DNA of 64,000 nucleotides from Natronobacterium gregoryi SP2. GTDB lineage: Archaea > Halobacteriota > Halobacteria > Halobacteriales > Natrialbaceae. Under the pieces are notes generated by a model. The model saw only the letters and a list, made by a program, of their open reading frames with translations, made no database searches and was not told where the DNA came from. The stretch's first letter is position 1. Every line of letters starts with the position of its first letter. The stretch covers positions 1,612,001 through 1,676,000 of the forward strand of contig NC_019792.1 in assembly GCF_000230715.2 (NCBI RefSeq), given 5' to 3'. Positions 6,585 through 42,496 of the stretch are shown here, one piece after another. A program made the position numbers and the translations under genes.

Positions 6585-7043
6585 TATAGATGTGTTGGCC
6601 AGCCAGCGCCTAAAACAGTTCCGCAACGTCCATCGCTGGAGAATAACCGCCCAACGGGACGATCGGTCGCACTCGAGGGTAGCCGTCGAGGAGACGGGAG
6701 GGATCGCTGTCTCGATGTCTCGGTACGACCGCGCACACAGGCGGTTACACCGGAACTGACCGCAAGGAAACTGTCGAGACGGACGGCTGTCACGAGGGGC
6801 CGACACCGCGATACCGGTCGCGTTCGCCGCCGCACCGACCGCCAGTCGGCCGTCGGAACCGACTCGAGAGGCCGGTCATCGATCGAAAGTAGCGGGGGGA
6901 ACGAACCGGCGTGGCCTCGTTGCCTTCGCGGTACATAGTTCTCTTGGCTTCGCGGCAGAAATCAGCGTCAGACGTGGCCGAAGAATCTTTACCCCGTTCC
7001 TCCGGACTGTGTATGTAGACGACCGATTCGGTCGACGTCATCG
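6585..7043. other. Intergenic region between divergent alaS and sensor gene
   Basis: 459 bp with no credible gene on either strand. It must carry the divergent promoters of alaS and of the GAF/PAS protein; I see no clear repeat or hairpin. Confidence 0.5.
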
Positions 7044-9203
7044 ATGGCATACTCGTCAACGCGCCCCCAGCCCCGGACGATTCTCTACGCGGCCCACTCC
7101 GAAGCGATGGCCCGCGACGGAGCGGCAGCACTGAAGCGCGTCCTGTCGGAGGTCGCTCGTGGAACCGACGTGGAACCGACGGTTCATCCGGTCGGTTCCG
7201 TCGAGGATCTCGACGAACTCTCCTCGCAGGCGGACTGTGTCGTCTTCTCGGAGTCGAGCGCCGGGGGCGACACAGCCGATACAGCGGCACACGCCGATCT
7301 GCTCGAGGTGGTCAACTGGTGTGAATCGACGCCGCTCGTCGTTTACACCGACGAGTCGTACGCGTCCGCCACCGCCCGCTCGGCAGACGAAATCGACGGC
7401 TACGTCCGTCGGAACACGGCCGACTCGCTGGTCCACCTCGCCGACGAAATCGTAAAGGAGTACCACGCGGACGTGCTCGAGGCGTCGACGGACGAATCGA
7501 ACTCGCTCGAGGAACTCAGCGGTGGCTCCCGGTCTGGTTCCGAACGCGGTCGACAGTCCCGACCCAGTGGCCCACCGTCGGCGTCCGAGCAGCCGGCGAC
7601 CTCGAGAACGACGACGCTTCTCCAGGCCGCAGCGCGCATCGCGGACTGTCGCGACCGCGACATCCTCTTCGAGCAACTGATCGACGAAGTCGTCGACGTA
7701 CTCGGCTTCGAACACTGCTGGCTCGCAACCGTCAACTTTGGCGATCTCGTCCCACGGACGTCCTCGCCGGCGGTCCCGGTGGAGGCACTCGGCGAGACGC
7801 CCGTCCGAAGTCCCTTCGGCGAGGCGTTTCGCTCCGGCGAACCAACCCACATCGACCTCGCGGGCCACGACGTACTCGGCGGTGGCACCGACCGCTCGCT
7901 GTACAGCATCCCCGTCGGTGACGTTGGCGTGTTGCAGGTCGTCGTCGACGCCGACGCGGCGACCGAAGACTCCTCGGCCGAATCCGACCTCGAGATGCTC
8001 GAGTCACTGTGTGGATACACTGCGACGATCCTCGAGCGAAACTGGACCGAACTCGGCTTGATCAACGACCGCGACCGGATCAAACGACAGCGCGATCGGC
8101 TCTCGGCCAAACAGAATCTGTTTGCCGACGCCTGCAAACGGCTCGAAAACGAACGTGACCGGCTCCAGACCGTCTTCGACCGGTTCCCGGACCCTACTGT
8201 CCGGTACGAGGTCGAAGACGGGACGGCCCGCATTCGAGGCGTCAACGACTCTTTCACCGAAGCGTTCGGCGACGAGGAATCGGTCGTCGGCGAGGGGCTC
8301 GCGGAGTACACGGTCCCCGACGGCCTCGCGGAACGGACAGCCGCACTCGACGAGGCACTTCGCTCCGGAAAGCAGCAGTTGCTCGTCCACCGCCGCGAGA
8401 CGGTCGAGGGGACCCGCGACTTCGTGTTGACCGTCGTTCCCCTCCAGACGACCGACGCCGAAGCCGAAGATGAAGACGAAAACGACGGCGAGCGGACGAA
8501 AGCCGGGCTGCTCGTCTACGACGACGTCACCGAGCGAAAACGCCGCGAACTCGAGCACGCAGCCGCGACGAAGCGTCTCGATGCCGTCACCGAACTCGCC
8601 GACGACGAACTCGAGCCCCAGCTAACCGTCGCCCGAAGCTATCTCGAACTCGCCGAGAAGACCGGCAAGGAAGAACACTTCCGGACGATGGAAGAGGCCC
8701 ACGAGGAAGCCAAGGTGGCGCTGGACGAACTGCTCGACACCGTCGGCAAAGCAGGCGACGAACTCGAACCGGTCGCGGTCAGCGACGTCGCCCGCCACGC
8801 CTGGACGACCGTCGACACCGACGGCGCACGGCTAGTCACCGAAAGCGACCTCATCCTCGAAGGCGATCGAAAGCGGTTGCGAGAACTGTTCGAGAGCGTG
8901 CTCGAGACCGCGATCGACGTCGACAGCGCCGAAAGTGAGACCGGAACTGATCCGGTTACGATCACCGTCGGCGCGACCGACGACGGCTTCTACGTGGTCG
9001 GTGACAGACCGACGACAGACAGCCCCGATGGGCCACAGGGTGCGCCGACGCCCGGCCGGCTGAACGGCACCGACGGGAGCGGACTCCAACTCGATCGGGT
9101 CGAGGAGATCGCCACCGACCACGGCTGGGACATCGGCGTCGCGGAGGACGACGATGGCACGGCCTTTGCCTTCCGCGGGGTCGACGCGGTCGATCTGTCC
9201 TGA
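7044..9203 (+). CDS. GAF/PAS sensor protein with degenerate receiver and kinase domains
   Basis: A 719-residue soluble signalling protein. In order: a receiver-like domain (about 10-118) whose phospho-acceptor strand reads CVVFSES, without the Asp; an acidic Ser-rich linker (about 120-185); a GAF domain (about 187-345); a coiled coil; a PAS domain (about 385-510) ending DDVTERKRR; a HisKA-like helix pair (about 515-585); and a HATPase-like C-terminus. At the H-box position the sequence reads ADDELEPQLTVA where active haloarchaeal kinases have a His, and the N-box Asn is absent (ELFESVLETAID). It therefore looks like a pseudokinase that may sense a ligand or redox state and signal by binding a partner. 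No partner regulator is adjacent. Confidence 0.8.
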   Translation: MAYSSTRPQPRTILYAAHSEAMARDGAAALKRVLSEVARGTDVEPTVHPVGSVEDLDELSSQADCVVFSESSAGGDTADTAAHADLLEVVNWCESTPLVVYTDESYASATARSADEIDGYVRRNTADSLVHLADEIVKEYHADVLEASTDESNSLEELSGGSRSGSERGRQSRPSGPPSASEQPATSRTTTLLQAAARIADCRDRDILFEQLIDEVVDVLGFEHCWLATVNFGDLVPRTSSPAVPVEALGETPVRSPFGEAFRSGEPTHIDLAGHDVLGGGTDRSLYSIPVGDVGVLQVVVDADAATEDSSAESDLEMLESLCGYTATILERNWTELGLINDRDRIKRQRDRLSAKQNLFADACKRLENERDRLQTVFDRFPDPTVRYEVEDGTARIRGVNDSFTEAFGDEESVVGEGLAEYTVPDGLAERTAALDEALRSGKQQLLVHRRETVEGTRDFVLTVVPLQTTDAEAEDEDENDGERTKAGLLVYDDVTERKRRELEHAAATKRLDAVTELADDELEPQLTVARSYLELAEKTGKEEHFRTMEEAHEEAKVALDELLDTVGKAGDELEPVAVSDVARHAWTTVDTDGARLVTESDLILEGDRKRLRELFESVLETAIDVDSAESETGTDPVTITVGATDDGFYVVGDRPTTDSPDGPQGAPTPGRLNGTDGSGLQLDRVEEIATDHGWDIGVAEDDDGTAFAFRGVDAVDLS

Positions 9204-9552
9204 GCGGTCGGATCAGCCGACGTACCTGGCCGGCACCGAGAGACCGAACTCCGGGGCCGACTCCGCGACGATCCCTTTACTCGTGTAAATGTCGGGCTTG
9301 TAGTAGAGTTCGTGCGTGATCCCGTACTCGTCCCGCAGGTGCTCCCTGACGCGGTCGACGTCGTCTTTTGCGAAGTAGTTCGGCGTGTAGACGGTCAGCA
9401 GGTAGTCGTCGTACATCTCGAGGTTGTCGTAGCCGAACGTCGTCATCGCCTTTGTCGCCCAGATGACGCCATCCCCCGCGTCGGCGACGAACTCGGGCCA
9501 CAGCTCCGCGATGCGCTCACCGGTGCCCGTCACCTGCCACTTGCCGAAGCTG

Positions 9553-10860
9553 ATGTACTACGCCTACAAGTATCGCCTCGAGCCGTCTGACGGCCAACGC
9601 GAGGAGTTGGACCGCCAGCGCGATATCTGTAGGCAACTATACAATCACACTCGCTACCGCCTCAACGAGTACCGAGAGAACCACGGCGAACTACCGTCCA
9701 TGACCACGCTTCGGTCGGAGCTACCTGGCCTCAAAAAGTGGTGGGACGAGCTCAATGACGTGTACTCGAAGGTACTCCAAACTGTCGTCGAACGATTCTT
9801 CAACAACCTCCGTAGCCTCTCCGCACTCAAAGAGAACGGCTACGACGTCGGCCAACTCAAGTGGAAGCCACCACGCGAGTTCCGCAGTTTCACGTACAAC
9901 CAGTCTGGCTTCGAGCTCGACAAGAAGGACGGTCAGACTGTCCTGTCACTCTCGAAACTTGCGGACATACCGATCCGGCTCCACCGAGAGATTCCCGACA
10001 ACGCCGCACTCAAACAGGTCACGCTCAAGAAGGAGCCAACGGGAGAGTGGTTCGCCACCTTCGGTGTCGAAGTCGACCGAGAGCCACCGCAAAAGCCCGA
10101 CCAGCCGACGGACGTCGTCGGGATCGACGTAGGCATCCTGAAGTACGCCCACGACACCGATGGTCACGCGGTCGAATCGGTTGACCTCTCGGACGAACGC
10201 GAACGGCTCGAGCGAGAGCAACGAAAACTCTCGCGCAAAGATCACGGCTCGAACAACTACGAGAAGCAACGCCGTCGCGTGGCCGAGTGTCACGCCGACC
10301 TGAAGAACAAGCGCCGAGACTTCTTGCACAAACTCTCGAACTACTACGCTCGAGAGTACGATCTAGTCGCGATCGAAGACCTTGACGCAAAAGGCTTGGT
10401 CGAACTTGACGGCAACTCTCGGAACCGTGCTGGAGCAGCGTGGGGGACGTTCCTTCAGATGCTCGAGTACAAGTGCGAACGCGAGGGAACGCGCTTCGTG
10501 GCCGTCGATCCGGCTGGAACGACCAAAGAGTGTGCGGCTTGCGGTGTGTCGAGCGAGAAACCGCTGTGGGTCCGCGAACACGCCTGTCCGTCGTGCGGGT
10601 TCACCGCCGATCGGGACTGGAACGCGGCCTGGAACATTCTTTCTCGCGGGATCAAGCAGGTAGGAGCGGGACGCTCCGAATCAACGTCCTCAGAATCGCC
10701 GTGCGATTCTGATGGGCTGCGAAAATCGCGCAGCGATTTTCGAACGCCTGTGGAGACTGCGCTCCCTACGGGAACCACCTCGGTTCCTGCAAAGCGCGTC
10801 GTGGAAGCAGGAAGCCCCATCTGCTCACGGGCGCGAAGCGCCCGTTCGCATGGTCCGTGA
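9553..10860 (+). CDS. tnpB: TnpB RNA-guided endonuclease (IS1341-type)
   Basis: A 435-residue TnpB. The N-terminal OrfB_IS605 helix-turn-helix region is followed by the RuvC fold: Asp in GIDVG (about residue 191), Glu in IEDL (about 274), the zinc motif CAAC...CPSC (about 320-347), and the last catalytic Asp in DRDWNAAW (about 353). All catalytic residues are present, so the protein may be active. The C-terminal tail (TSVPAKRVVEAGSP) overlaps the guide-RNA scaffold, as usual. Residues about 378-396 are an extra Ser/Asp-rich stretch encoded by two short palindromes. A longer upstream reading is open but falls in the DUF1917 target sequence, so the start at 9553 is used. Confidence 0.9.
   Translation: MYYAYKYRLEPSDGQREELDRQRDICRQLYNHTRYRLNEYRENHGELPSMTTLRSELPGLKKWWDELNDVYSKVLQTVVERFFNNLRSLSALKENGYDVGQLKWKPPREFRSFTYNQSGFELDKKDGQTVLSLSKLADIPIRLHREIPDNAALKQVTLKKEPTGEWFATFGVEVDREPPQKPDQPTDVVGIDVGILKYAHDTDGHAVESVDLSDERERLEREQRKLSRKDHGSNNYEKQRRRVAECHADLKNKRRDFLHKLSNYYAREYDLVAIEDLDAKGLVELDGNSRNRAGAAWGTFLQMLEYKCEREGTRFVAVDPAGTTKECAACGVSSEKPLWVREHACPSCGFTADRDWNAAWNILSRGIKQVGAGRSESTSSESPCDSDGLRKSRSDFRTPVETALPTGTTSVPAKRVVEAGSPICSRARSARSHGP
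10691..10741. repeat. Two adjacent 21-bp palindromes inside the tnpB 3' end
   Basis: 10691-10711 is a hairpin with arms CAGAATCGC and GCGATTCTG, and 10721-10741 is a second with arms GAAAATCGC and GCGATTTTC. They add residues between GAGRSES and TPVETALP, a joint that is continuous in the family as I know it. They precede the conserved RNA scaffold and could be extra stem-loops of the overlapping RNA or a small palindromic insertion. Confidence 0.6.
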
Positions 10861-10867
10861 GACCTTA

Positions 10868-12019
10868 ATGATCAAGATAACTTTTGCAAATATGGACTGA
10901 GGAACTGGTCGATCCAAGACTTGGCGAATCCAAGTCGATCGGTGAGGGTGTTGAAGAGGCGGCGAGCGAGAGTGCGGAACGCGCTCTCGCTCGCCACGAC
11001 GATTGGTGAAGCATTCCGTTTGAGCACTTTCCAGACCTGCTCGATTGGATTGAGATGCGGTGAACCGACCGGAAGAAAGACGAGATCGATACCGAGTTGA
11101 TGTGCGCGCTTGCGCGTGTGCTCACAGATGTGAGACGAGAAGTTGTCCAAGACGAGCAGAATCCGCGTTCCCGGATTCTGCTCGCGGACCTCCTCCAATA
11201 GGGCACAGATGTTCTCTTTCGATTGATCTTCAGGAAAGGTCAGGACACTTTCGCCGTTGAGCGTATAGCACCCGACCGCTGGTTCGTCAAGCTTCACCAG
11301 CGGTCGTTCGAGTGTCGGATCATCGACGTACCACAGTCGATGCGAATTGTCGTATGGTTGCGGATGAGAAGCGTCACAAAAACCGACGATAGTTCCTCCA
11401 TCTGTACAGATATCGTCGTCGAGAACCCAGCCTTCGTCCTCATCCTCGGGACGCTTGTTATGTGCTGTCTCTGTTTCCTCGTCGAACGCGTCTGCGACGC
11501 GTTCTTCGAGGATTTCATCTGCATTTTCTGGCCGTGAGGGACGTTTTGGACGTGGTTTAGCGTAAGACAGTCCGAGATTCCGGAGGAATCGACCGAGATA
11601 ATCCGGATGGTACTCAACATCGAACTCTTCGTCCAAGAGCTGGTGAACTTCCTGTGCTTTCCAGGGCTGTCCCTCCCGGAGAAGTTCTAGAAGACACTCT
11701 TGTTCCTCGTCACCGAGCTTCGGGGGCCTTCCGCTCCCGAAGTTCGGTGTCAACTGACCCAGCCCGCCATCGTTCCATCGACGTGCCCAGCGACTTCCAG
11801 TCGACGCAGATTTCCCAACGTCGTCGGCTGCTTCTTCGTACGTTGCACCCTTGTAGAGACGTTTGACAAAGGTGAGCCGCTTGACGACCTTTGGATCGTC
11901 TGCTTCGTCCAGCAGACGATCCAACTCCTCCTCGCTCAGATGACGAACGAGCTCGCCCCGCCGGTCTCCTCCCATTACCCCGTTCGTCTTAGCCCACGCC
12001 CAAAACTTCTGTCACTCAT
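10868..12019 (-). mobile_element. IS630-type insertion sequence
   Basis: An 1152-bp element flanked by TA at 10866-10867 and 12020-12021, the TA duplication typical of the IS630/Tc1 group. Imperfect terminal inverted repeats of 19 bp: ATGATCAAGATAACTTTTG at the left and ATGAGTGACAGAAGTTTTG read inwards from the right (13 of 19 identical). One transposase gene fills it on the minus strand, with its stop codon inside the left repeat. It sits in the loop of a hairpin of the tnpB element. Confidence 0.85.
10872..11975 (-). CDS. IS630 family transposase
   Basis: A 367-residue DDE transposase. The N-terminal third carries two helix-turn-helix modules of the IS630 type (YKGATYEEAADDVGKS and the GSGRPPKL linker to a second HTH), followed by the catalytic core with Asp in GFCDAS, Asp in LVLDNFSSH and Glu in HLNPIEQVWK. 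No frameshift or stop interrupts it, so the element may still be mobile. It is transcribed opposite to the tnpB gene that surrounds it. Confidence 0.92.
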   Translation of the reverse strand: MGGDRRGELVRHLSEEELDRLLDEADDPKVVKRLTFVKRLYKGATYEEAADDVGKSASTGSRWARRWNDGGLGQLTPNFGSGRPPKLGDEEQECLLELLREGQPWKAQEVHQLLDEEFDVEYHPDYLGRFLRNLGLSYAKPRPKRPSRPENADEILEERVADAFDEETETAHNKRPEDEDEGWVLDDDICTDGGTIVGFCDASHPQPYDNSHRLWYVDDPTLERPLVKLDEPAVGCYTLNGESVLTFPEDQSKENICALLEEVREQNPGTRILLVLDNFSSHICEHTRKRAHQLGIDLVFLPVGSPHLNPIEQVWKVLKRNASPIVVASESAFRTLARRLFNTLTDRLGFAKSWIDQFLSPYLQKLS

Positions 12020-12164
12020 TACGGTCTCACGCTACCCTCAAGGAGCGAACGGCGTCAGCCGTGAGCGAGTAGGGTGGGGTAGTTCACATGCTATCGGGTT
12101 TTGCCACCGTGTTCTCGGAGAAACGTGGCGTACGCATTTGTGCCGGAAGACGGTACGTGTCGGT

Positions 12165-12674
12165 ATGTTCAGACGTGCTCGAGAGCTCGGCCCGCCGGTG
12201 CTGGTCCCGCTGGCCTGGGGATTCGTGACTGCTGCCTATCTCGGCGTCGTCGCCGAACGAACGCTGTTCGTCGCCCACGTCGTGATGGCCGTCTTTCTGG
12301 TCGGCTTCGCGGCGACCGGCTACGCCGACATGCGCGAGGGCCTGCTCCAAACGTGGTGGTGGATCGTCGCCGTCGGCTCGCTCGTCACGCTCTGTGGCGT
12401 CGTCGGCCTCTGGCTCGAGCCGACGAATCGGCTGCTCGAGGCCGTCGCCCTCTTTGGCTGGATCGGCCTGCCGGCGATCGGGTTCGTCGAAACCGGGCGT
12501 CGGGTCGGCCGAGGAACTCGGATCTACGTGGCCGGAGCCGCTGGCTGTCTGTTCGGTGCGATCCTCTTTGCCGGCGGCCAGTTCTGGTCCCTCGAACTGA
12601 CCGCGGCCGTGGGCCTCGCTCTCGTCGGCGTCGGACAGACGGCGGGGATTGTCGATGCGGCAGTCCGCTACTGA
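12165..12674 (+). CDS. Haloarchaeal integral membrane protein, unknown function
   Basis: 169 residues with a short basic N-terminus (MFRRARELG) and about five or six hydrophobic segments, among them LVPLAWGFVTAAYLGVV, HVVMAVFLVGFAATGYA, WWWIVAVGSLVTLCGVVGLW and the last near residues 130-165. I recognise no named domain. Its ATG is only 27 bp from the start of the divergent DUF1917 gene, so its promoter must lie within or beyond that broken gene, or the true start is further in. Function unknown. Confidence 0.65.
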   Translation: MFRRARELGPPVLVPLAWGFVTAAYLGVVAERTLFVAHVVMAVFLVGFAATGYADMREGLLQTWWWIVAVGSLVTLCGVVGLWLEPTNRLLEAVALFGWIGLPAIGFVETGRRVGRGTRIYVAGAAGCLFGAILFAGGQFWSLELTAAVGLALVGVGQTAGIVDAAVRY

Positions 12675-12777
12675 ACCGATAGCGACACGCATCACGCCCC
12701 GCTGTGAGCCGATCGATCCGTCGATGTCCCTCCCTTCTCCTGCCCCCATCCTGGGAGACCCTGGAGAGAAATCGACG

Positions 12778-13770
12778 CTACGCGTCGTCGTCCAAGGCCA
12801 GCGACGCCAGCATCGCCTCGAGTTGCAGGCGCTCGTTTGCACCTTCCGTGATGCGGTAGTCGACTTCGCCGAGACGTTCGAGCAGCCGCACGGTCGCCCG
12901 CTCGGGGATGTCAAACTCCCAGGCGGAGCGGTGGAGTTGATCGATGACGTCGCCGCCGGCGAGCCCGCGATCCATGAGCAAGTCTTCGAGGGCTGCGCGG
13001 GCGGCAGTGAAGTCGCCGTCGATAGCGTGTTCGACCATCTCCTCGACCTCCTCGGGGCGGGCGGTCGAGGTGATCGCGAAGACGGTCTCCTCGTCGACGA
13101 CTTCGCCCATGACGGCTGCAGCCTGGAGGCCGTTGATCGCCTTGCGCATGTCGCCGTCGGCCGCGTAGACCAGCGCGTCGACACCGTTGTCGGTGAGTTC
13201 GATCGTTTCGGTAGCGGCAATCTCGCGTATCTGTGTCTCGACCGCGTCGTCACCGAGTTCGGTAAAGCGAAAGACCGCACAGCGAGACTGGATCGGGTCG
13301 ATGATCTGACTCGAGTAGTTACACGAGAGGATGAATCGCGTGTTGTTCGAGAACTGTTCCATCGTGCGACGCAGTGCGGATTGGGCGTCGCTGGTCAGCG
13401 CGTCGGCTTCGTCCAGGAAGATGATGCGGTGGTCGTAGCCGCCAAACGACGATCGCGCGAAGTCTTTGATCCGGTCGCGGACGACGTCGATCCCGCGCTG
13501 GTCGGAGGCGTTCAACTCGAGGAAGTTCTCCTTCCAGTCGTCGCCGTAGACTTCGCGGGCGATAGCTTGTGCACTGGCCGTTTTGCCAACGCCCGCCGGC
13601 CCCGCGAACATGAGGTGGGGGAGGTCGTCCTGCTCGACGTACCGTTTCAGTCGCGGGACGATGTTCTCGTGGCCCTTGATCTCGTCGAGCCGCTCCGGCC
13701 GGTACTTCTCGATCCAGACTTCTGTCTTGCCGGGTGTCGGCTCCGCCGCCTCGGCGTCGGCCTCGCTCAT
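12778..13770 (-). CDS. rfcS: Replication factor C small subunit
   Basis: Clamp-loader ATPase subunit that helps load PCNA onto primed DNA. The 330-residue protein carries Walker A GPAGVGKT (about residue 48-55), Walker B FLDEADAL and the arginine-finger motif PIQSRC, followed by the lid and C-terminal collar helices. Length is normal for the intein-free archaeal small subunit; no intein is present. It is a single gene; the SAMP2 gene starts 640 bp away on the other strand. Confidence 0.96.
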
Positions 13771-14411
13771 ACCGGCCCAACGCGTGGGGCGAAAATAAAT
13801 CGTCCGAAGGTCGACTTCGAACCGCTACCGGCTCCGCCCACCCACACGGTAGCTTGCCGCTGGCCGAGAAACCGTCGCACGCGTCACTGTGAGCACGGCC
13901 CACTCGTGGGGCCGTCGTCTGTGTCGTCCTCGTCACGTTCGTCCGGGCGATGACAGCGACGGGTCCGACAGTTCCAAAACCGAAAGACGGGGCAGCCGTA
14001 TGGTCGTCGCGGACGGCAAGACGATCGAGACCCCTCGAGACGGCCCGATCGTACTGAACACGACGGCTGCACTCGTTGGCTCTGCCCCAGCGAACTGGTC
14101 AGACCGTCGATGTGAACGGCAGACGCGAAGCGATGCCAGCACGGAAGGGTCGATGCCGGCTCGAATCGTCCCGAGAGCCCCACTCGCGGTCACGCCGCTC
14201 GAGTCTTTTTCTGTTTCCCACTTTCGACGGACGGACTACAGCACTTACGTATCTCGAGAGCGAAGTCGTAGCTGCCGTTCACGTATTCACCCACCTGAGC
14301 GATACGAAGACCGTCCATCGGGCCATTTCAGCCCACTTTTCCAGGTGCTAGATTCGATACAGTCCAGTCATCGAGCGACGCGCTCAAGTCCGCGCCATCG
14401 TAACTGCGAGT
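13771..14411. other. Long intergenic region between rfcS and SAMP2 genes
   Basis: 641 bp between divergent genes. Open frames here have arginine-rich, unnatural translations and look like high-GC noise. I see no repeat, tRNA or clear hairpin. It must hold the rfcS promoter on the left and the SAMP2 promoter on the right; possible non-coding RNA cannot be judged from sequence alone. Confidence 0.5.
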
Positions 14412-14618
14412 ATGCACGTCACCGTCGACGTCAAAGGCGAGGGAAGCCACGAGATCGATCTCGCGGAACTCGAGGAGGAGACCTACGCTGGTCTGCTCCG
14501 GAAAGTCGACCTCAGTCCCCACGAGGTGAGTGTCCTCGTCGACGGCCAACCGGTACCGGAGGATCAGCCGGTCGAGAGCGACGAGGTGACAGTGTTGCGG
14601 CTGATCAAGGGCGGATAG
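14412..14618 (+). CDS. samp2: Small archaeal modifier protein SAMP2 (ubiquitin-like)
   Basis: A 68-residue beta-grasp protein ending in KGG, the C-terminal di-glycine that is adenylated by UbaA and attached to lysines of target proteins, and which also carries sulfur for tRNA wobble-uridine thiolation. The core (LSPHEVSVLVDGQPVPED, then VLRLIKGG) closely matches the Haloferax SAMP2 pattern as I remember it. The internal lysine that allows SAMP2 chains is plausible in VTVDVKGEG. No E1 gene is nearby. Its stop codon is directly adjacent to the stop of the convergent ilvA gene. Confidence 0.9.
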   Translation: MHVTVDVKGEGSHEIDLAELEEETYAGLLRKVDLSPHEVSVLVDGQPVPEDQPVESDEVTVLRLIKGG

Positions 14619-15857
14619 CTACGCGTTGGCGTGTTTGACCTCGTGGCCGTGGTCGCGGATCGATCGAATGATCGCTCGCGCCTGTCCTGCACCGCTCGTC
14701 TCGATTTCGAAGACGAGATGGGCCTCGCCGACGTCGAGTTCCGGAGCCGACCGGTCGTGTCGGATCGTCTGAATGTTGGCGTTGTGTTTCGCGATCAACC
14801 CTGAAATCTCTTCCATCTTGCCCGGTTGGTCGTCGATCCGGACCCGGAGTCGGAGTAGCTGATCGCGGTCGGAAAGTGCATGGACCAGCACAGTCTGTAA
14901 CATCGTCATGTCGAGATTGCCACCACACAGCAGCGGCATCACGGTCTCACCCGAGACGTCGAGTTCCTCGCTGATGATGGCTGCAACCGACGCTGCGCCC
15001 GCGCCCTCGACGACCTGTTTCGCCCGCTCCAACAGGAGCAAGATAGCACGCGCGATTTCGCCGTCTGTCACCGTTACCACCTCGTCGACGTGGTCCTCGA
15101 TCAACGAGAGCGTGAGATCCGAAATGCCACCCGTGGCGATCCCGTCGGCGATCGTATCGACCGACTCGAGCGAGACGGGGACTCCTTTCTGGAGGCTGTC
15201 CGGAACTGTCGTGGCACCAGAGGCCTGCACCCCGACGACCCGGGTTTCCGGCGAGAGTTCGTCGAACGCGGTCGCGATTCCCGAGATGAGTCCGCCACCA
15301 CCGATCGGAACGACGATGGTGTCGACCTCGGGCAGGTCCTCGTACATCTCGACGCCGAGCGTGCCCTGGCCGGCGACGATCGCGGGGTCGTCGTAGGCGT
15401 GGACGAACTCGACGTCGTCGTCCGCGGAGCTGAGTTCCTGTGCGTGGGCCATCGCCTCGCGGAAGTCGGTGCCGACGAGTTCCACTTCGGCTCCGTACTC
15501 CCGCGTCGCGTCGACCTTGGCCTGGGGAGCGGTCCGGGGCATCACGATGGTCGACTCGACGCCGAGTTTCGTCGCCGCGAGTGCGACGCCCTGGGCGTGG
15601 TTGCCGGCACTCGCAGCGACGACCCCCCCGATATCACCTTCCGCCGCAGTCTTGGCAATCTTGTTGTACGCACCACGAGTCTTGAACGAGCCCGTCCACT
15701 GCAGGTGCTCCATCTTGAGGTGGACCTCGCCACCGGTGAGTTCGTCCAGTGACGTACTCCGTTCGACGGGCGTCCGTTTGACGACCGACTCGTCGTCGAG
15801 ACGCTCGCGGGCCGTCTCGATGTCGGCGAACGTAACGAGATCGGAACTATCAGTCAT
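14619..15857 (-). CDS. ilvA: Threonine ammonia-lyase (threonine dehydratase)
   Basis: PLP enzyme converting threonine to 2-oxobutanoate, the first step of isoleucine synthesis from threonine. 412 residues: catalytic domain with the PLP lysine in GSFKTRGAY (Lys59) and the Gly-rich phosphate loop GGGGLISG, then a C-terminal ACT-like regulatory domain (about 330-412; RVRIDDQPGKM). The ATG at 15857 is chosen over a site 12 bp upstream because it gives the normal N-terminus and a TATA-like element (ATTATTTG) about 26-35 bp before it. Convergent with the SAMP2 gene, with no spacer between stop codons. Confidence 0.94.
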   Translation of the reverse strand: MTDSSDLVTFADIETARERLDDESVVKRTPVERSTSLDELTGGEVHLKMEHLQWTGSFKTRGAYNKIAKTAAEGDIGGVVAASAGNHAQGVALAATKLGVESTIVMPRTAPQAKVDATREYGAEVELVGTDFREAMAHAQELSSADDDVEFVHAYDDPAIVAGQGTLGVEMYEDLPEVDTIVVPIGGGGLISGIATAFDELSPETRVVGVQASGATTVPDSLQKGVPVSLESVDTIADGIATGGISDLTLSLIEDHVDEVVTVTDGEIARAILLLLERAKQVVEGAGAASVAAIISEELDVSGETVMPLLCGGNLDMTMLQTVLVHALSDRDQLLRLRVRIDDQPGKMEEISGLIAKHNANIQTIRHDRSAPELDVGEAHLVFEIETSGAGQARAIIRSIRDHGHEVKHANA

Positions 15858-16174
15858 TCGTTGGTGCAATATTTACACAGGGGCAAATAATGGTTCCCTC
15901 ACCGACTTGCTCGAGTGAGACGGATTGCTGTACCTCTCTCTTGTCGATCGCCAGAACGGTGTCGGCGACCGGTAGTAATTGACGACAGGAAACCGTCTGA
16001 AGGCGAGCGACGAGCCGACCGTCAGAAGACGAGTTTCGGTCGGTGAGAAAGCCGGACAGTTTTGCTCCCGGAACGCAGAGATGCCGTCGTAATGGCGAAC
16101 GCGTACAATGGGCGACGTCTGGAGGGAGCGACGAGCGGACGACTCGTGCCGAGAGCACTCCCGCGACGCGGACG
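15858..16174. other. Divergent promoter region of ilvA and a GNAT gene
   Basis: 317 bp without a credible gene. On the minus strand CCATTATTTGC at about 15883-15893 is a reasonable TATA element for ilvA. Nothing else recognisable. Confidence 0.45.
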
Positions 16175-16579
16175 ATGACGATATCGACGTTCGTCCGGTC
16201 CGCACGACCCGAGGACGCCCTCGAGGTCAGGCGTATCCTCGACGCGGCGATGCTCGAGCCCGGCGACGTCGACGCACGAATCGACGATAGCGACGTTTTC
16301 GTGGCGGGTGATCGGACCGGAGCGACAGAACGCATCCTCGGCACTGCCGTCCTCGAACCACTCGAAACTCAGCACGGGGCACACCTCTCCGCGATCGGCG
16401 TCCGTCGCCGTCACCGGGGAAACGGTCTCGGTCGGCGGTTGGTCGAGCGCTCACTCGAGCGAGAAGGCAGGCTCACCGCACGGTTCGACGACGGCGTCCG
16501 TCCGTTCTACGATTCGCTCGGTTTTACCATCGAGTCGGTAGACGAGCAGCGATATCGGGGGGTACTCGTCGAGAGGTGA
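16175..16579 (+). CDS. GNAT family N-acetyltransferase
   Basis: A 134-residue single-domain acetyltransferase using acetyl-CoA. The CoA-binding turn is visible as VRRRHRGNGLGRRLV (about residues 73-87), and the C-terminal strand FYDSLGF is the usual end of the fold. The acceptor is unknown. The ATG at 16175 is preferred to longer readings, which are arginine-rich and unlike the family. A solitary tnpB right end follows it by about 50 bp. Confidence 0.82.
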   Translation: MTISTFVRSARPEDALEVRRILDAAMLEPGDVDARIDDSDVFVAGDRTGATERILGTAVLEPLETQHGAHLSAIGVRRRHRGNGLGRRLVERSLEREGRLTARFDDGVRPFYDSLGFTIESVDEQRYRGVLVER

Positions 16580-16625
16580 CGGGCTCCGAACGCGTTCTGG
16601 CCAGTCCCAGTAGTACCAGTGGGCT

Positions 16626-16739
16626 GGAACCGACTGCGTCCCCTCCAAGAGCCACTTCGGTTCCTGCAAAGCGCGTCGTTAAAATGGGAAGCCCCACTCG
16701 AGCGCGAGCGCAAGCGAGCGAGTAGAGTGGGTAGCTAAC
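16626..16739 (+). repeat. Solitary tnpB element right end (reRNA-like relic), copy 1
   Basis: Shares with the tnpB element the block from GACTGCG through TTCGGTTCCTGCAAAGC and GCGTCGT to GGAAGCCCC. It still translates as the TnpB C-terminal tail (TSVPAKRVV, then MGSP), but no other part of tnpB is present. The end forms a stem with arms CCCACTC and GAGTGGG and closes with GGGTAGCTAACC, homologous to GGGGTAGTTCAC of the full element. It could be a decayed element or a stand-alone guide RNA gene; bases after 16739 would be the guide. Confidence 0.75.
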
Positions 16740-16793
16740 CGACTGTTGACCGCCCTGACGACTCCGCCGACGGAACCCAGGACCAAAGACACG

Positions 16794-19175
16794 TTACGAC
16801 TCCGACTCGAGTTTCGTCCGGAACCGGTCGAGTCCGAGTCCGAGCATGTCGGGGCTTACAGACTGGAACTCGCCGTTGTCCGGCAGGTAGCCGCGAACGG
16901 AATCCCAACTGTCGCGAGCGTAGCGTTCGTCTAGCAGCACCCGGACGCCGACGTCGTCAGGGCTCCGGATGACACGGCCGATCGCTTGGCGTGCCTTCCG
17001 GACCGCAGGGATCGTCAGCGCATACTCGAAACCGTCGCCGAACGCGTCGTCGTACGCTCGCCTCACGGCCTTCGTCCGCGGACTCGAGGTGTTGACGATC
17101 GGTACGCCACAGACCACGGCAGCCGAAAGGCGATCGCCGCTGTAGTCGACGCCTTCCGTGAGCGTTCCCCGGAGACTCGTCACGAGCACCTTCCCGTCGC
17201 CCGCGAAGAACTCGGATTTCAGCGACTGGGTCGTCTCGTCGTCGCTCGAGGCGTCCAGCAGGACGGGTTTGTCGACGCGCGACTCGAGTTCGCCCGCGAT
17301 CCACTCGGCCTCGGCGTAACTCGGCATGCCGACGAGGACGTTACCGGGGAGGCTGGCGACCGTCGAGACGGCGTCAGCGTAGTGGGTTCTGGTCTGGTTC
17401 TCCGCTCCCGGGTGACCACGGTTGTCGTACGTGTACTTCGGCGCGGCGACCGCGAAACTCTCGCGGTTCTCCTCGGGGAAGTGGAGTCCGTAGCGGCGCT
17501 CGACGACCGGCCTGTCTTCCTCGCGCTCGAGGTAGTCGAGTCCTATCACTTCAGCGAACGCCTCGACCGGCTCGAGAGTCGCGCTCATCAGGACGCCACC
17601 GCCGAAAGCGGCGAGTCGATCTCCGATGGCGTCGCTTGGCACGCAGTTGTGCAAGGCGAGGCGGGCGTTGTAGGCCCGACGCCAGGAATCGACAGGCTCG
17701 GTGTCGTCCCAGGTGCGCTCGAGTTCGATCTCCCGGAAGTAGTCGGTGTGATCGCAGCGATACCACTCGCCGAGCACGCGGCCGACCGCCGGCGCGGCTC
17801 GAGCCCGCTCTTCGTCCTCGGCCTCGTTCAGAATCCGGGCGACGACGGCCCCGACGGCTTCGGCGCGAACCCACTCGACGTCGCCGTAGCCAGCCTCGCG
17901 AGCCCACTCGCTGATCTCGTCTTCTGCCGGTTCGGCAGGATCGCGGAGGGGGATCTCCTCGTCCTCGAGATCAGTCAGGTTCGACTCCCAGCCCCGGTGG
18001 TTCCGGTCGAGAGAGGCCGTCACCCGTCGGTCGAGTTCGGCGCGGAGGTCCTGGATGAACTCGAGCGTGCGGTGCAGTTCCTCGTAGGAGACGTCGCTGT
18101 CGTTCAGTTCCGAGCGCACGAGGTCGGCGTCGGCGGTCTTCGACCCGCCCTGGGCCTGCCGTCCCTCGCGTTCGAACTTGACCGGCTGGATGACCCGCGA
18201 GAGTTCGGTTTCGGCGTCCCGCAGCGTTCGATCGGCGACCCCGTCGCTGACCAGATCGCGGACGCGAGGCTCGAGCATGTGTGCCTCGTCGCAGACGACG
18301 AACGTCGAATCGTCGAGCAACGCGCCCGTAAAAGAGCCGGTCGTCTGAGGGTCGAAGGCGTGGTAGTAGTTGCCGACGACGACCTCGACCTGGCCCAGCA
18401 CTGCGCCCATCACCGAGTGCGGACAGGTGCCGTTGCGAACCGCGCGAGCTACGAGTTCCGACGGCGTGACCAGCCCAGCCTCCGTGAAGTCGTAGGGGAC
18501 GGCCTCGGCAGGATCGCCAGTACCGTCTTCGCTCTCCGGCAGGTCCTCGAGATACTGGGCGTAGAACGGACAGTACTCTGTTTCGGCTCCTGCTGGCCCG
18601 CCGTCGCTGTACTCGGGGAGGTCGAGCGGATAGGGCGTCGGCTCGCCGGCGGTCTCGAGGTAGTTCGCACTGCCGGCACTGCCGCTGTCGGCGAGCCCGA
18701 TCTGCTGGCTGCGGGCGCGTGCGGCGAGGTTCTGTGCCGTCGTCTCGCCACCCTCTCCGGTGAGGTCTCGCGTACGATCCCGCAACGTCTCACAGCGGTC
18801 GTAGACGTTGCCGTCGTCGATCCCCGCAGCACCCTCGCGGTTGTACGGACAGACGTCGGCCTTACCGACGAGCGTGAGTCCCGAGACCGGTCGCCAGTCG
18901 TCGGGCAGGGTCTCGTTTATCGTCTCTAAGTCCTCCTCGAACTGGCGTAACTGTTGTTTGACGCTCGTGAGGACGAACACCCGCTCGTAGTCGCTGTCGG
19001 GGTCGCGCACGAGGTCGATCCCGGCCGTGAGCGCGAGCATCGTCTTCCCGGTGCCACAGGCCCCCTCGACGACGGTGTAGCCGCCCTCGCGGGCGGTCTC
19101 GACGGCCGTCTCGATCCCGTCGACCTGCTCGTCGTAGGGCTCGTCGTGGCCGAAGATCGCGCGCCAGTCCGTCAT
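16794..19175 (-). CDS. XPD/Rad3-like ATP-dependent DNA helicase (iron-sulfur, superfamily 2)
   Basis: A 793-residue 5'-3' DNA helicase of the XPD/DinG type, probably in DNA repair. Walker A GACGTGKT is at residues 39-46, DEAH near residue 297 and the C-terminal motifs ITSLRGTLTEGVDY-like and QAIGRVIRS near the end. Four cysteines between motifs (in DVCPYN, YDRCET, EYCPFY and GTCPHS) are placed like the 4Fe-4S cluster ligands of this family. A long acidic insertion follows the cluster. The gene stands alone; the neighbouring CPBP pseudogene is transcribed in the same direction from 81 bp or more upstream. Confidence 0.9.
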   Translation of the reverse strand: MTDWRAIFGHDEPYDEQVDGIETAVETAREGGYTVVEGACGTGKTMLALTAGIDLVRDPDSDYERVFVLTSVKQQLRQFEEDLETINETLPDDWRPVSGLTLVGKADVCPYNREGAAGIDDGNVYDRCETLRDRTRDLTGEGGETTAQNLAARARSQQIGLADSGSAGSANYLETAGEPTPYPLDLPEYSDGGPAGAETEYCPFYAQYLEDLPESEDGTGDPAEAVPYDFTEAGLVTPSELVARAVRNGTCPHSVMGAVLGQVEVVVGNYYHAFDPQTTGSFTGALLDDSTFVVCDEAHMLEPRVRDLVSDGVADRTLRDAETELSRVIQPVKFEREGRQAQGGSKTADADLVRSELNDSDVSYEELHRTLEFIQDLRAELDRRVTASLDRNHRGWESNLTDLEDEEIPLRDPAEPAEDEISEWAREAGYGDVEWVRAEAVGAVVARILNEAEDEERARAAPAVGRVLGEWYRCDHTDYFREIELERTWDDTEPVDSWRRAYNARLALHNCVPSDAIGDRLAAFGGGVLMSATLEPVEAFAEVIGLDYLEREEDRPVVERRYGLHFPEENRESFAVAAPKYTYDNRGHPGAENQTRTHYADAVSTVASLPGNVLVGMPSYAEAEWIAGELESRVDKPVLLDASSDDETTQSLKSEFFAGDGKVLVTSLRGTLTEGVDYSGDRLSAAVVCGVPIVNTSSPRTKAVRRAYDDAFGDGFEYALTIPAVRKARQAIGRVIRSPDDVGVRVLLDERYARDSWDSVRGYLPDNGEFQSVSPDMLGLGLDRFRTKLESES

Positions 19176-41854: not shown

Positions 41855-41967
41855 GTCTGCAAAGCGCGTCGTAGAAACGGGAAGCCTCGGGGTCGTTCGA
41901 GAGAGCGAAGCTCCCTCGTGATGACGAGAATTTTCGATTCTCGAACCACTTGGCCCCGAGGCGATTC
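41855..41967 (+). repeat. Solitary tnpB element right end (reRNA-like relic), copy 2
   Basis: Starts CTGCAAAGCGCGTCGTAGAA and GGGAAGCC, the conserved scaffold of the tnpB element at 9.5 kb. It ends in a perfect 9-bp stem (GCCTCGGGG / CCCCGAGGC) followed by GATTCAC. No tnpB coding sequence remains. The final TCAC supplies, on the minus strand, the TGA stop codon of the ribosomal protein gene. Bases after 41967 (the guide position) are the 3' end of that gene. Confidence 0.75.
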
Positions 41968-42496
41968 ACGCGATCAATTTCTCTTCGCCTTTCTCGACCA
42001 CGATCCGACACGGCGGCGTGATCTTGTTGTAGGCGCGACGGAACGCTTCCTTGGCGAAGTCGGCGTCGTCGACGTCACACCAGATCGTGAAGATGCGGTC
42101 GCCAGCGTCGATTCGCGCGGCGGTGCCGACGATTTTCCCGAACGACTGGCGCATCCCGTCGGAAACACGGTCTGCACCCGCACCGGTCGCCTGCTTGTTC
42201 TCCCGAATGACGTTGTGGGGGAACTTACGCAGGATCATCTTGTAGTTACCCTCGCCGGCGTTTTTCAGCATGTAGCGGTTGGCCGAGAGACGTGAGGACT
42301 CGAGTGAGCCGTGACGGATCTGGACTTCTTCTTCCGTGACGAGGCTGATCTGGACGGGGTAGTCCTCGGCCTCGGCACCGATGTCGCCCATCTTGTGCTG
42401 TGCAATCTTCGAACCCGGGATGCCAGTAATGTATTCACGGCGCGTGTAGGCCGGCTTACTGATGTCCCGGTACATCGAGGCGGGTTTCTCGGACAT
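41966..42496 (-). CDS. rpl10e: 50S ribosomal protein L16 (archaeal L10e)
   Basis: 176-residue large-subunit protein near the tRNA sites and the peptidyl-transferase centre. [19 protein letters not shown] at the start, [16 protein letters not shown] and the end [10 protein letters not shown] are the family's landmarks. It is a single gene away from the ribosomal operons, as usual in haloarchaea. Its TGA stop lies within the end of a solitary tnpB right-end relic. Confidence 0.96.

What the first reader, a model, noticed from the sequence alone, without database searches (positions are those of the whole stretch)
10775..12087. TnpB keeps its catalytic residues but its own guide RNA is split
RuvC Asp, Glu, Asp and the zinc motif are intact and the reading frame is open. 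The IS630 element, however, sits in the loop GTGAGACC-TTAC-GGTCTCAC of the right end, between scaffold and guide. The nuclease would lack a cis guide, unless a transcript through the IS is processed. It may therefore depend on scaffolds from elsewhere, such as the two solitary right ends in this window.
Basis: partly seen in the sequence, partly recalled or inferred. Interest (0 to 1): 0.7.

Follow-up and report, generated by a model that had tools for sequence, protein, structure and literature searches.

The report
Hairpin-seeking IS630 splits TnpB guide RNA
In a salt-loving archaeon, a jumping gene that seems to land exactly at the tips of DNA hairpins has landed in the guide-RNA gene of a TnpB nuclease, so this copy has probably just lost its own guide, while an almost identical intact copy sits elsewhere in the genome.

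Summary
The anatomy is real. The tnpB frame (9553-10860) is open, RuvC and zinc motifs kept. A 1,156-bp IS630-family element (10866-12021) divides the guide-RNA scaffold: 91 nt before it, 66 nt plus guide after it, both letter-identical to a complete paralogue (genome 1535154-1536458) that has a single T between them.

Corrections: the break is inside the scaffold, at the apex of a 60-nt two-hairpin mini-element nested in it; and the "TTAC loop" is not the old loop, since relatives have three-base apices and the TA comes with the IS.

The wider result is the IS. Of 25 two-ended copies in 10 genomes, 19 interrupt a perfect inverted repeat of 6 bp or more, against 23 of 1,181 control TA sites. 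In 10 of 10 testable insertions the uninterrupted relative has no TA at the junction: insertion at hairpin tips without the TA duplication expected of IS630/Tc1-mariner. tnpB or right-end hairpins are hit in four genomes.

Most likely a recent hit, too young for tnpB to decay.

The parts
9213..9533 (-). 3' part of a Bles03-like gene, broken at its 5' end next to tnpB; longer in relatives G083, G080 and G081
   Evidence: Pfam PF08939 profile 174-252 of 255; orthologous loci
9553..10860 (+). tnpB, 435 aa, RuvC D/E/D and zinc motif intact; shared sequence with the paralogue starts 5 nt before the ATG
10686..10742 (+). palindromic two-hairpin insert in the 3' coding part of tnpB, absent from the related copy L017 and present in L013 and L014; boundaries approximate
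   Evidence: sequence comparison by eye
10775..10865 (+). upstream 91 nt of the guide-RNA scaffold checked, letter-identical to the complete paralogue L013
10819..10865 (+). left part of a 60-nt two-hairpin mini-element nested in the scaffold, cut at the apex of its second hairpin
   Evidence: right ends without it in 6 of 6 fetched loci, it alone in 10 of 10 fetched loci
10866..12021 (-). IS630-family element (1,156 bp with the TA at both ends), inserted at the hairpin apex where the paralogue has one T
10872..11975 (-). IS630-family transposase, 367 aa, open frame
12022..12033 (+). right part of the nested mini-element
12022..12087 (+). downstream 66 nt of the scaffold with the 3' end GTAGTTCAC, letter-identical to L013
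12088..12103 (+). predicted 16-nt guide position (the flank), now separated from tnpB
   Evidence: inference from the ISDra2 guide-RNA layout (PMC8612924, passages)
16626..16737 (+). solitary right end 1: core and hairpin present, altered 3' terminus, no nested mini-element
   Evidence: absent at orthologous place in 3 of 3 relatives
41859..41972 (+). solitary right end 2, of the type of the other TnpB (L016); its hairpin is a repeated palindrome

Best explanation
A three-level nest. Level 1: an IS200/IS605-type tnpB element whose right end encodes the guide-RNA scaffold (shown by comparison; transcription inferred). Level 2: a 60-nt two-hairpin mini-element that sits in that scaffold in many relatives and also exists alone (shown). 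Level 3: an IS630-family element inserted at the apex of the second hairpin (shown). This IS clade inserts at the tips of inverted repeats whose arms have unrelated sequences, so the target is most simply the DNA hairpin itself, as single strand or cruciform (inferred). It brings its own TA ends and replaces 0-1 target bases instead of duplicating a TA (shown by comparison with uninterrupted relatives). At this locus the hit detaches guide and 3' scaffold from the rest, so the locus very probably makes no functional cis guide RNA (inferred). tnpB is intact because the hit is recent, not because it has been re-wired; if expressed, TnpB could load the guide RNA of its near-identical paralogue (inferred).
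For: Both scaffold parts are identical to L013, joined there by one T. Seven other full IS copies in this genome are 99.5-99.9% identical to ours, so the spread is recent. Hairpin apices: 19 of 25 two-ended copies in 10 genomes. Empty sites: 10 of 10 insertions with an uninterrupted paralogue or relative lack TA at the junction: L026, L032, L030, L027, L031, L091 with one base replaced, L028 and L092 with none, L087 and L085 with joined flanks one base longer than a 96% or 91% relative. L092 rests on a relative identical over 140 bp; L027 on six own-genome places at 99%. tnpB or right-end hits by this IS: own genome L026, L032, L030 and a degraded L043; L046 in G082 and L075 in G038; L282 and L288 in G161. 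In the own genome 3 of 7 matches to the mini-element carry this IS or its remnant at the apex.
Against: No RNA or protein data. 6 of 25 copies have no stem of 6 bp under the strict loop rule (L033, L088, L089, L057, L075, L039/35). Three of these have an explanation: uninterrupted relatives of L033's left flank show a 9-bp stem with a 13-base loop, L088 has an 11-bp stem with a lopsided loop (read by eye), and L075's left flank is a right-end hairpin whose right arm is gone. L057, L089 and L039/35 remain weak. L050, L077 and L078 share one site type, and L026 and L032 could be one event copied by recombination, so the 25 are not all independent. One long copy, L034, has TA at one end only. Empty sites are paralogues or relatives, not the parent cell.
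Confidence: 0.85

Rival explanations
1. The IS630 inserted by the textbook route into a TA dinucleotide and duplicated it; the hairpin loops simply contained TA.
For: Eight of the nine long own-genome copies are flanked by TA on both sides and the ninth, L034, on one side, as expected for IS630/Tc1-mariner; for ISY100 the TA was shown to be a target duplication (PMC2170065, passages).
Against: 10 of 10 insertions with an uninterrupted relative show no TA at the junction; 21 of 21 displayed related hairpins have three-base apices without TA.
Confidence: 0.1
2. TnpB here works as a trans-acting nuclease loaded by guide RNAs from solitary right ends, perhaps kept by selection for a trans role.
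For: Intact frame; 13 synonymous against 8 non-synonymous differences from L013, pN/pS 0.19; TnpB and its guide RNA were expressed from separate plasmids in PMC8612924 (passages).
Against: The differences from L013 need not postdate the insertion; they lie in codons 17-238 and the rest is identical. A complete paralogue exists. The two named ends are either of another TnpB's type or altered, and not conserved at their places.
Confidence: 0.08
3. The two halves work together as a natural two-piece guide RNA: the upstream scaffold and a downstream scaffold-plus-guide re-anneal through the complementary arms left on either side of the IS, or a read-through transcript folds the IS out as a large loop.
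For: Folding: left and right parts bind with about -18.0 kcal/mol against a mean of -7.7 (sd 3.4) for 100 shuffled right parts; in the 1.36-kb read-through RNA 16 left-right pairs form.
Against: No promoter is known for the downstream piece; the scan covers only bacterial-type promoters and found none there. The transposase gene is antisense. At least one of the 100 shuffles bound more strongly (-20.2). Such re-pairing follows from any apex insertion and needs no selection.
Confidence: 0.04

Closest known systems
IS630/Tc1-mariner elements (ISY100, Shigella IS630)
   Same: DDE transposase of the IS630 family (NF033545), inverted ends beginning with TA, about 1.16 kb
   Different: inserts at hairpin apices; TA is not found in uninterrupted relatives of the target, whereas ISY100 duplicates a target TA (PMC2170065, abstract and passages). 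The CTAG preference of Shigella IS630 is known to me only from a cited title in that call and from recall
IS1272 (IS1182 family by recall) of Staphylococcus
   Same: targets are inverted repeats of unrelated sequence, no target duplication (PMC5678879, abstract and section 22)
   Different: IS1272 replaces the whole inverted repeat; here both arms are kept and only 0-1 apex bases are replaced; different transposase family
IS200/IS605-type TnpB with omega RNA (haloarchaeal sotRNA)
   Same: TnpB protein, right-end scaffold with terminal hairpin; such RNAs are expressed in Halobacterium salinarum (PMC12558985, abstract and section 3.3.3)
   Different: this copy's scaffold is interrupted, so no contiguous guide

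Membership tests
IS630 family | IS630-family DDE transposase | tested here: met
   NF033545 291 bits, cut-off 100; DDE_3
IS630 family | terminal inverted repeats | tested here: met
   TAATGA at both ends
IS630 family | duplication of a target TA | tested here: not met
   10 of 10 insertions with an uninterrupted relative have no TA at the junction; so it is filed by its transposase only, not by its insertion behaviour
TnpB / OMEGA nuclease | RuvC D, E, D and zinc motif | tested here: met
   alignment to 8bf8
TnpB / OMEGA nuclease | contiguous right-end guide RNA with the guide in the flank | tested here: not met
   scaffold interrupted by 1,156 bp
TnpB / OMEGA nuclease | guide RNA expressed and nuclease active | not testable with these tools
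   needs RNA sequencing and a cleavage assay
IS200/IS605 element | tnpA beside tnpB or a mobile copy | tested here: inconclusive
   no tnpA recognised by eye among ORFs at 8-18.5 kb; a related copy, L017, has a tnpA-like end upstream (read by eye)
TldR-type exapted regulators (recalled) | loss of RuvC catalytic residues | tested here: not met
   residues kept
IS1272-type inverted-repeat replacement | both arms of the target inverted repeat removed | tested here: not met
   both arms remain

The most novel reading that the evidence does not exclude
A clade of haloarchaeal IS630 elements recognises folded DNA: its transposase attacks the two strands at the tip of a hairpin or cruciform, joins a TA-ended element there without target duplication, and so has become a recurrent parasite of IS200/IS605 right-end hairpins and the palindromic mini-elements nested in them. 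Each such hit cuts an omega RNA gene into two complementary halves, a natural starting material for a two-piece guide like tracrRNA plus crRNA.
Probability: 0.5. Interest if true: 0.78.

Novelty: new variant of a known kind. Interest (0 to 1): 0.6.

Why it matters
TA duplication is treated as a constant of the IS630/Tc1-mariner group. A clade that inserts at hairpin tips without it would be a new target-choice mode, testable with a plasmid carrying designed hairpins. It would also mark places where DNA folds into hairpins in living haloarchaea, explain why guide-RNA genes of TnpB elements are repeatedly broken, and show one mobile element switching off another's RNA-guided nuclease.

Tried and rejected
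Rfam scan of 9000-17500 found nothing up to E = 1. PDB sequence search with the IS630 transposase gave no hit up to E = 0.01. The promoter/terminator scan was uninformative for an archaeon. The TldR idea was rejected because the catalytic residues are kept. Simple insertion of the tnpB element into the Bles03-like gene was rejected: the right flank does not continue that gene, and its neighbour gene matches elsewhere in G080 and G081, so the element's left and right neighbours come from different places. A script for the 72%-identical IS group missed the closer group's right end, and L271 failed in the final script although one search gave it a 7-bp stem; it is not in the 25. Paper searches for an IS630 that targets hairpins or lacks TA duplication listed none by title or abstract start; these cover only open-licence full texts, of which I opened few, and one of the original IS630 target papers is not held, so priority cannot be claimed. 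PMC2246112 (passages) says nothing on hairpin targets. No paper on a split TnpB guide RNA turned up; I recall one on RNA splitting in the origin of type V CRISPR but did not see it. [quoted passage not shown]

Full report
What is there. The window is G000:C1:1612001-1676000 of a one-contig 3,788,356-bp genome; its haloarchaeal nature is my reading of the sequence. tnpB runs from 9553 to 10860. It is a guided_TnpB by NCBIfam, aligned to ISDra2 TnpB with catalytic and zinc residues in register. Downstream, the right-end scaffold is interrupted at 10866-12021 by an IS630-family element whose transposase lies on the minus strand.

The paralogue. The own genome has a 98% identical TnpB at 1535154-1536458. 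Over 1,319 aligned bases 1,298 are identical, without gaps. Its right end is uninterrupted. The 91 nt before and the 66 nt after our IS are both found letter for letter in it, separated by one T. So the IS with its two TA ends stands where one T stood. Differences between the two genes are 13 synonymous and 8 non-synonymous; this says nothing about the time since the insertion.

The nested mini-element. Right ends without the hit hairpin exist: 6 of 6 fetched loci chosen for matching only the last part of the query read GGAAGCCCC directly followed by (A/G)CCCTC. The 60-nt stretch also exists alone: 10 of 10 fetched loci chosen for matching only that part (these 16 loci were picked from the long list). 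In the own genome seven places match it: four uninterrupted, and three with this IS or its remnant at the apex (ours, 1775414, 1114283).

The IS targets hairpin tips. Junctions were read for all long own-genome matches and for relatives. In the final count of 25 two-ended places in 10 genomes, 19 have a perfect stem of at least 6 bp around the junction, against 23 of 1,181 control TA sites of the window; for at least 9 bp it is 15 of 25 against 1 of 1,181. The earlier, smaller counts gave 13 of 15 and, for the 72%-identical group, 6 of 8; those overlap the 25. The arms are unrelated in sequence, so the common feature is the fold. Not fitting: L033, L088, L089, L057, L075 and L039/35. For L033 uninterrupted copies of the left flank show a 9-bp stem with a 13-base loop, and its right flank is not found beside that left flank elsewhere; L088 has an 11-bp stem with a lopsided loop; L075 has lost one arm of a right-end hairpin.

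No TA duplication. For 10 insertions an uninterrupted paralogue or relative was available and none has TA at the junction: CCTTCGG for L026 and L032, GCGAAGC for L030, CTCCTGG for L027, CGTTCG for L028, ATCAACGAT for L031 (three of five copies; one ATCAATGAT, one ATCATTGAT), GAGCCATGCTC for L091, ACCGAACGGT for L092; L087 and L085 have relatives of 96% and 91% that are one base shorter than the joined flanks. In ISY100 of the same family the TA is a target duplication (PMC2170065, passages). IS1272 of another family also uses inverted repeats without duplication but removes them (PMC5678879).

Recurrence on tnpB right ends. In the own genome the same IS sits in three right-end hairpins (ours, 1775462, 1370495) and, degraded, in a fourth at 348210. 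Elsewhere it hits the 3' part of a tnpB in G082 (L046), a right end in G038 (L075), a right end with the nested mini-element in G161 (L282) and a tnpB gene in G161 (L288). The TnpB at 1371718 (49% identical to ours) has therefore also had its right end split.

The solitary ends. The end at 41859-41972 is like the right end of the 1371718 TnpB and its hairpin matches at least 18 other own-genome places (with 40 of 285 candidates scored). At its orthologous place G083 and G082 show no match, G080 and G081 only stretches of 28-35 nt. The end at 16626 has an altered terminus and no counterpart in G083, G080 or G081 (one 14-nt match). Neither looks like a dedicated guide source for our TnpB.

Expression. 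The paralogue carries a small ORF overlapping the tnpB start, read by eye as a ribbon-helix-helix protein; our locus shares sequence only from 5 nt before the ATG (no upstream match). The upstream neighbour is the broken Bles03-like gene on the other strand. Expression of our tnpB is therefore open.

Could the halves cooperate? The separated parts can re-pair in a folding computation, -18.0 kcal/mol against -7.7 (sd 3.4) for 100 shuffles whose lowest value is -20.2. This is expected of any apex insertion and shows possibility only.

Verdict. Its most likely meaning is a recent hit by an IS that seeks hairpin tips, with an intact twin elsewhere in the genome. The unusual part is the IS's target choice and the missing TA duplication, a claim from comparison of sequences that a transposition assay can test directly.

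Noticed in passing
window 15916-16000: A palindromic repeat with many similar places in this genome and others in relatives (query 6917-7001).
   Followed up: no
window 10686-10742: A palindromic two-hairpin insert in the 3' coding part of tnpB, present in L012, L013 and L014 and absent in L017.
   Followed up: partly
L150 (G083:C2:620543-620596): The tnpB relative in G083 carries a 54-bp insert between two matching parts, similar to the palindrome hit by IS630 in L031.
   Followed up: no
L027, L028, L033: IS630 copies sit in or beside other transposase genes (IS1595-like and IS4-like, read by eye), so this IS often lands in other mobile elements.
   Followed up: partly
window 12088-12700: The right flank of the tnpB element (membrane-protein gene) matches a different place in G080 and G081 than the left flank does, so the region was rearranged.
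   Followed up: partly
L012 against L013: All 21 differences lie in tnpB codons 17-238; the last part of the gene and the scaffold are identical, as after gene conversion.
   Followed up: no
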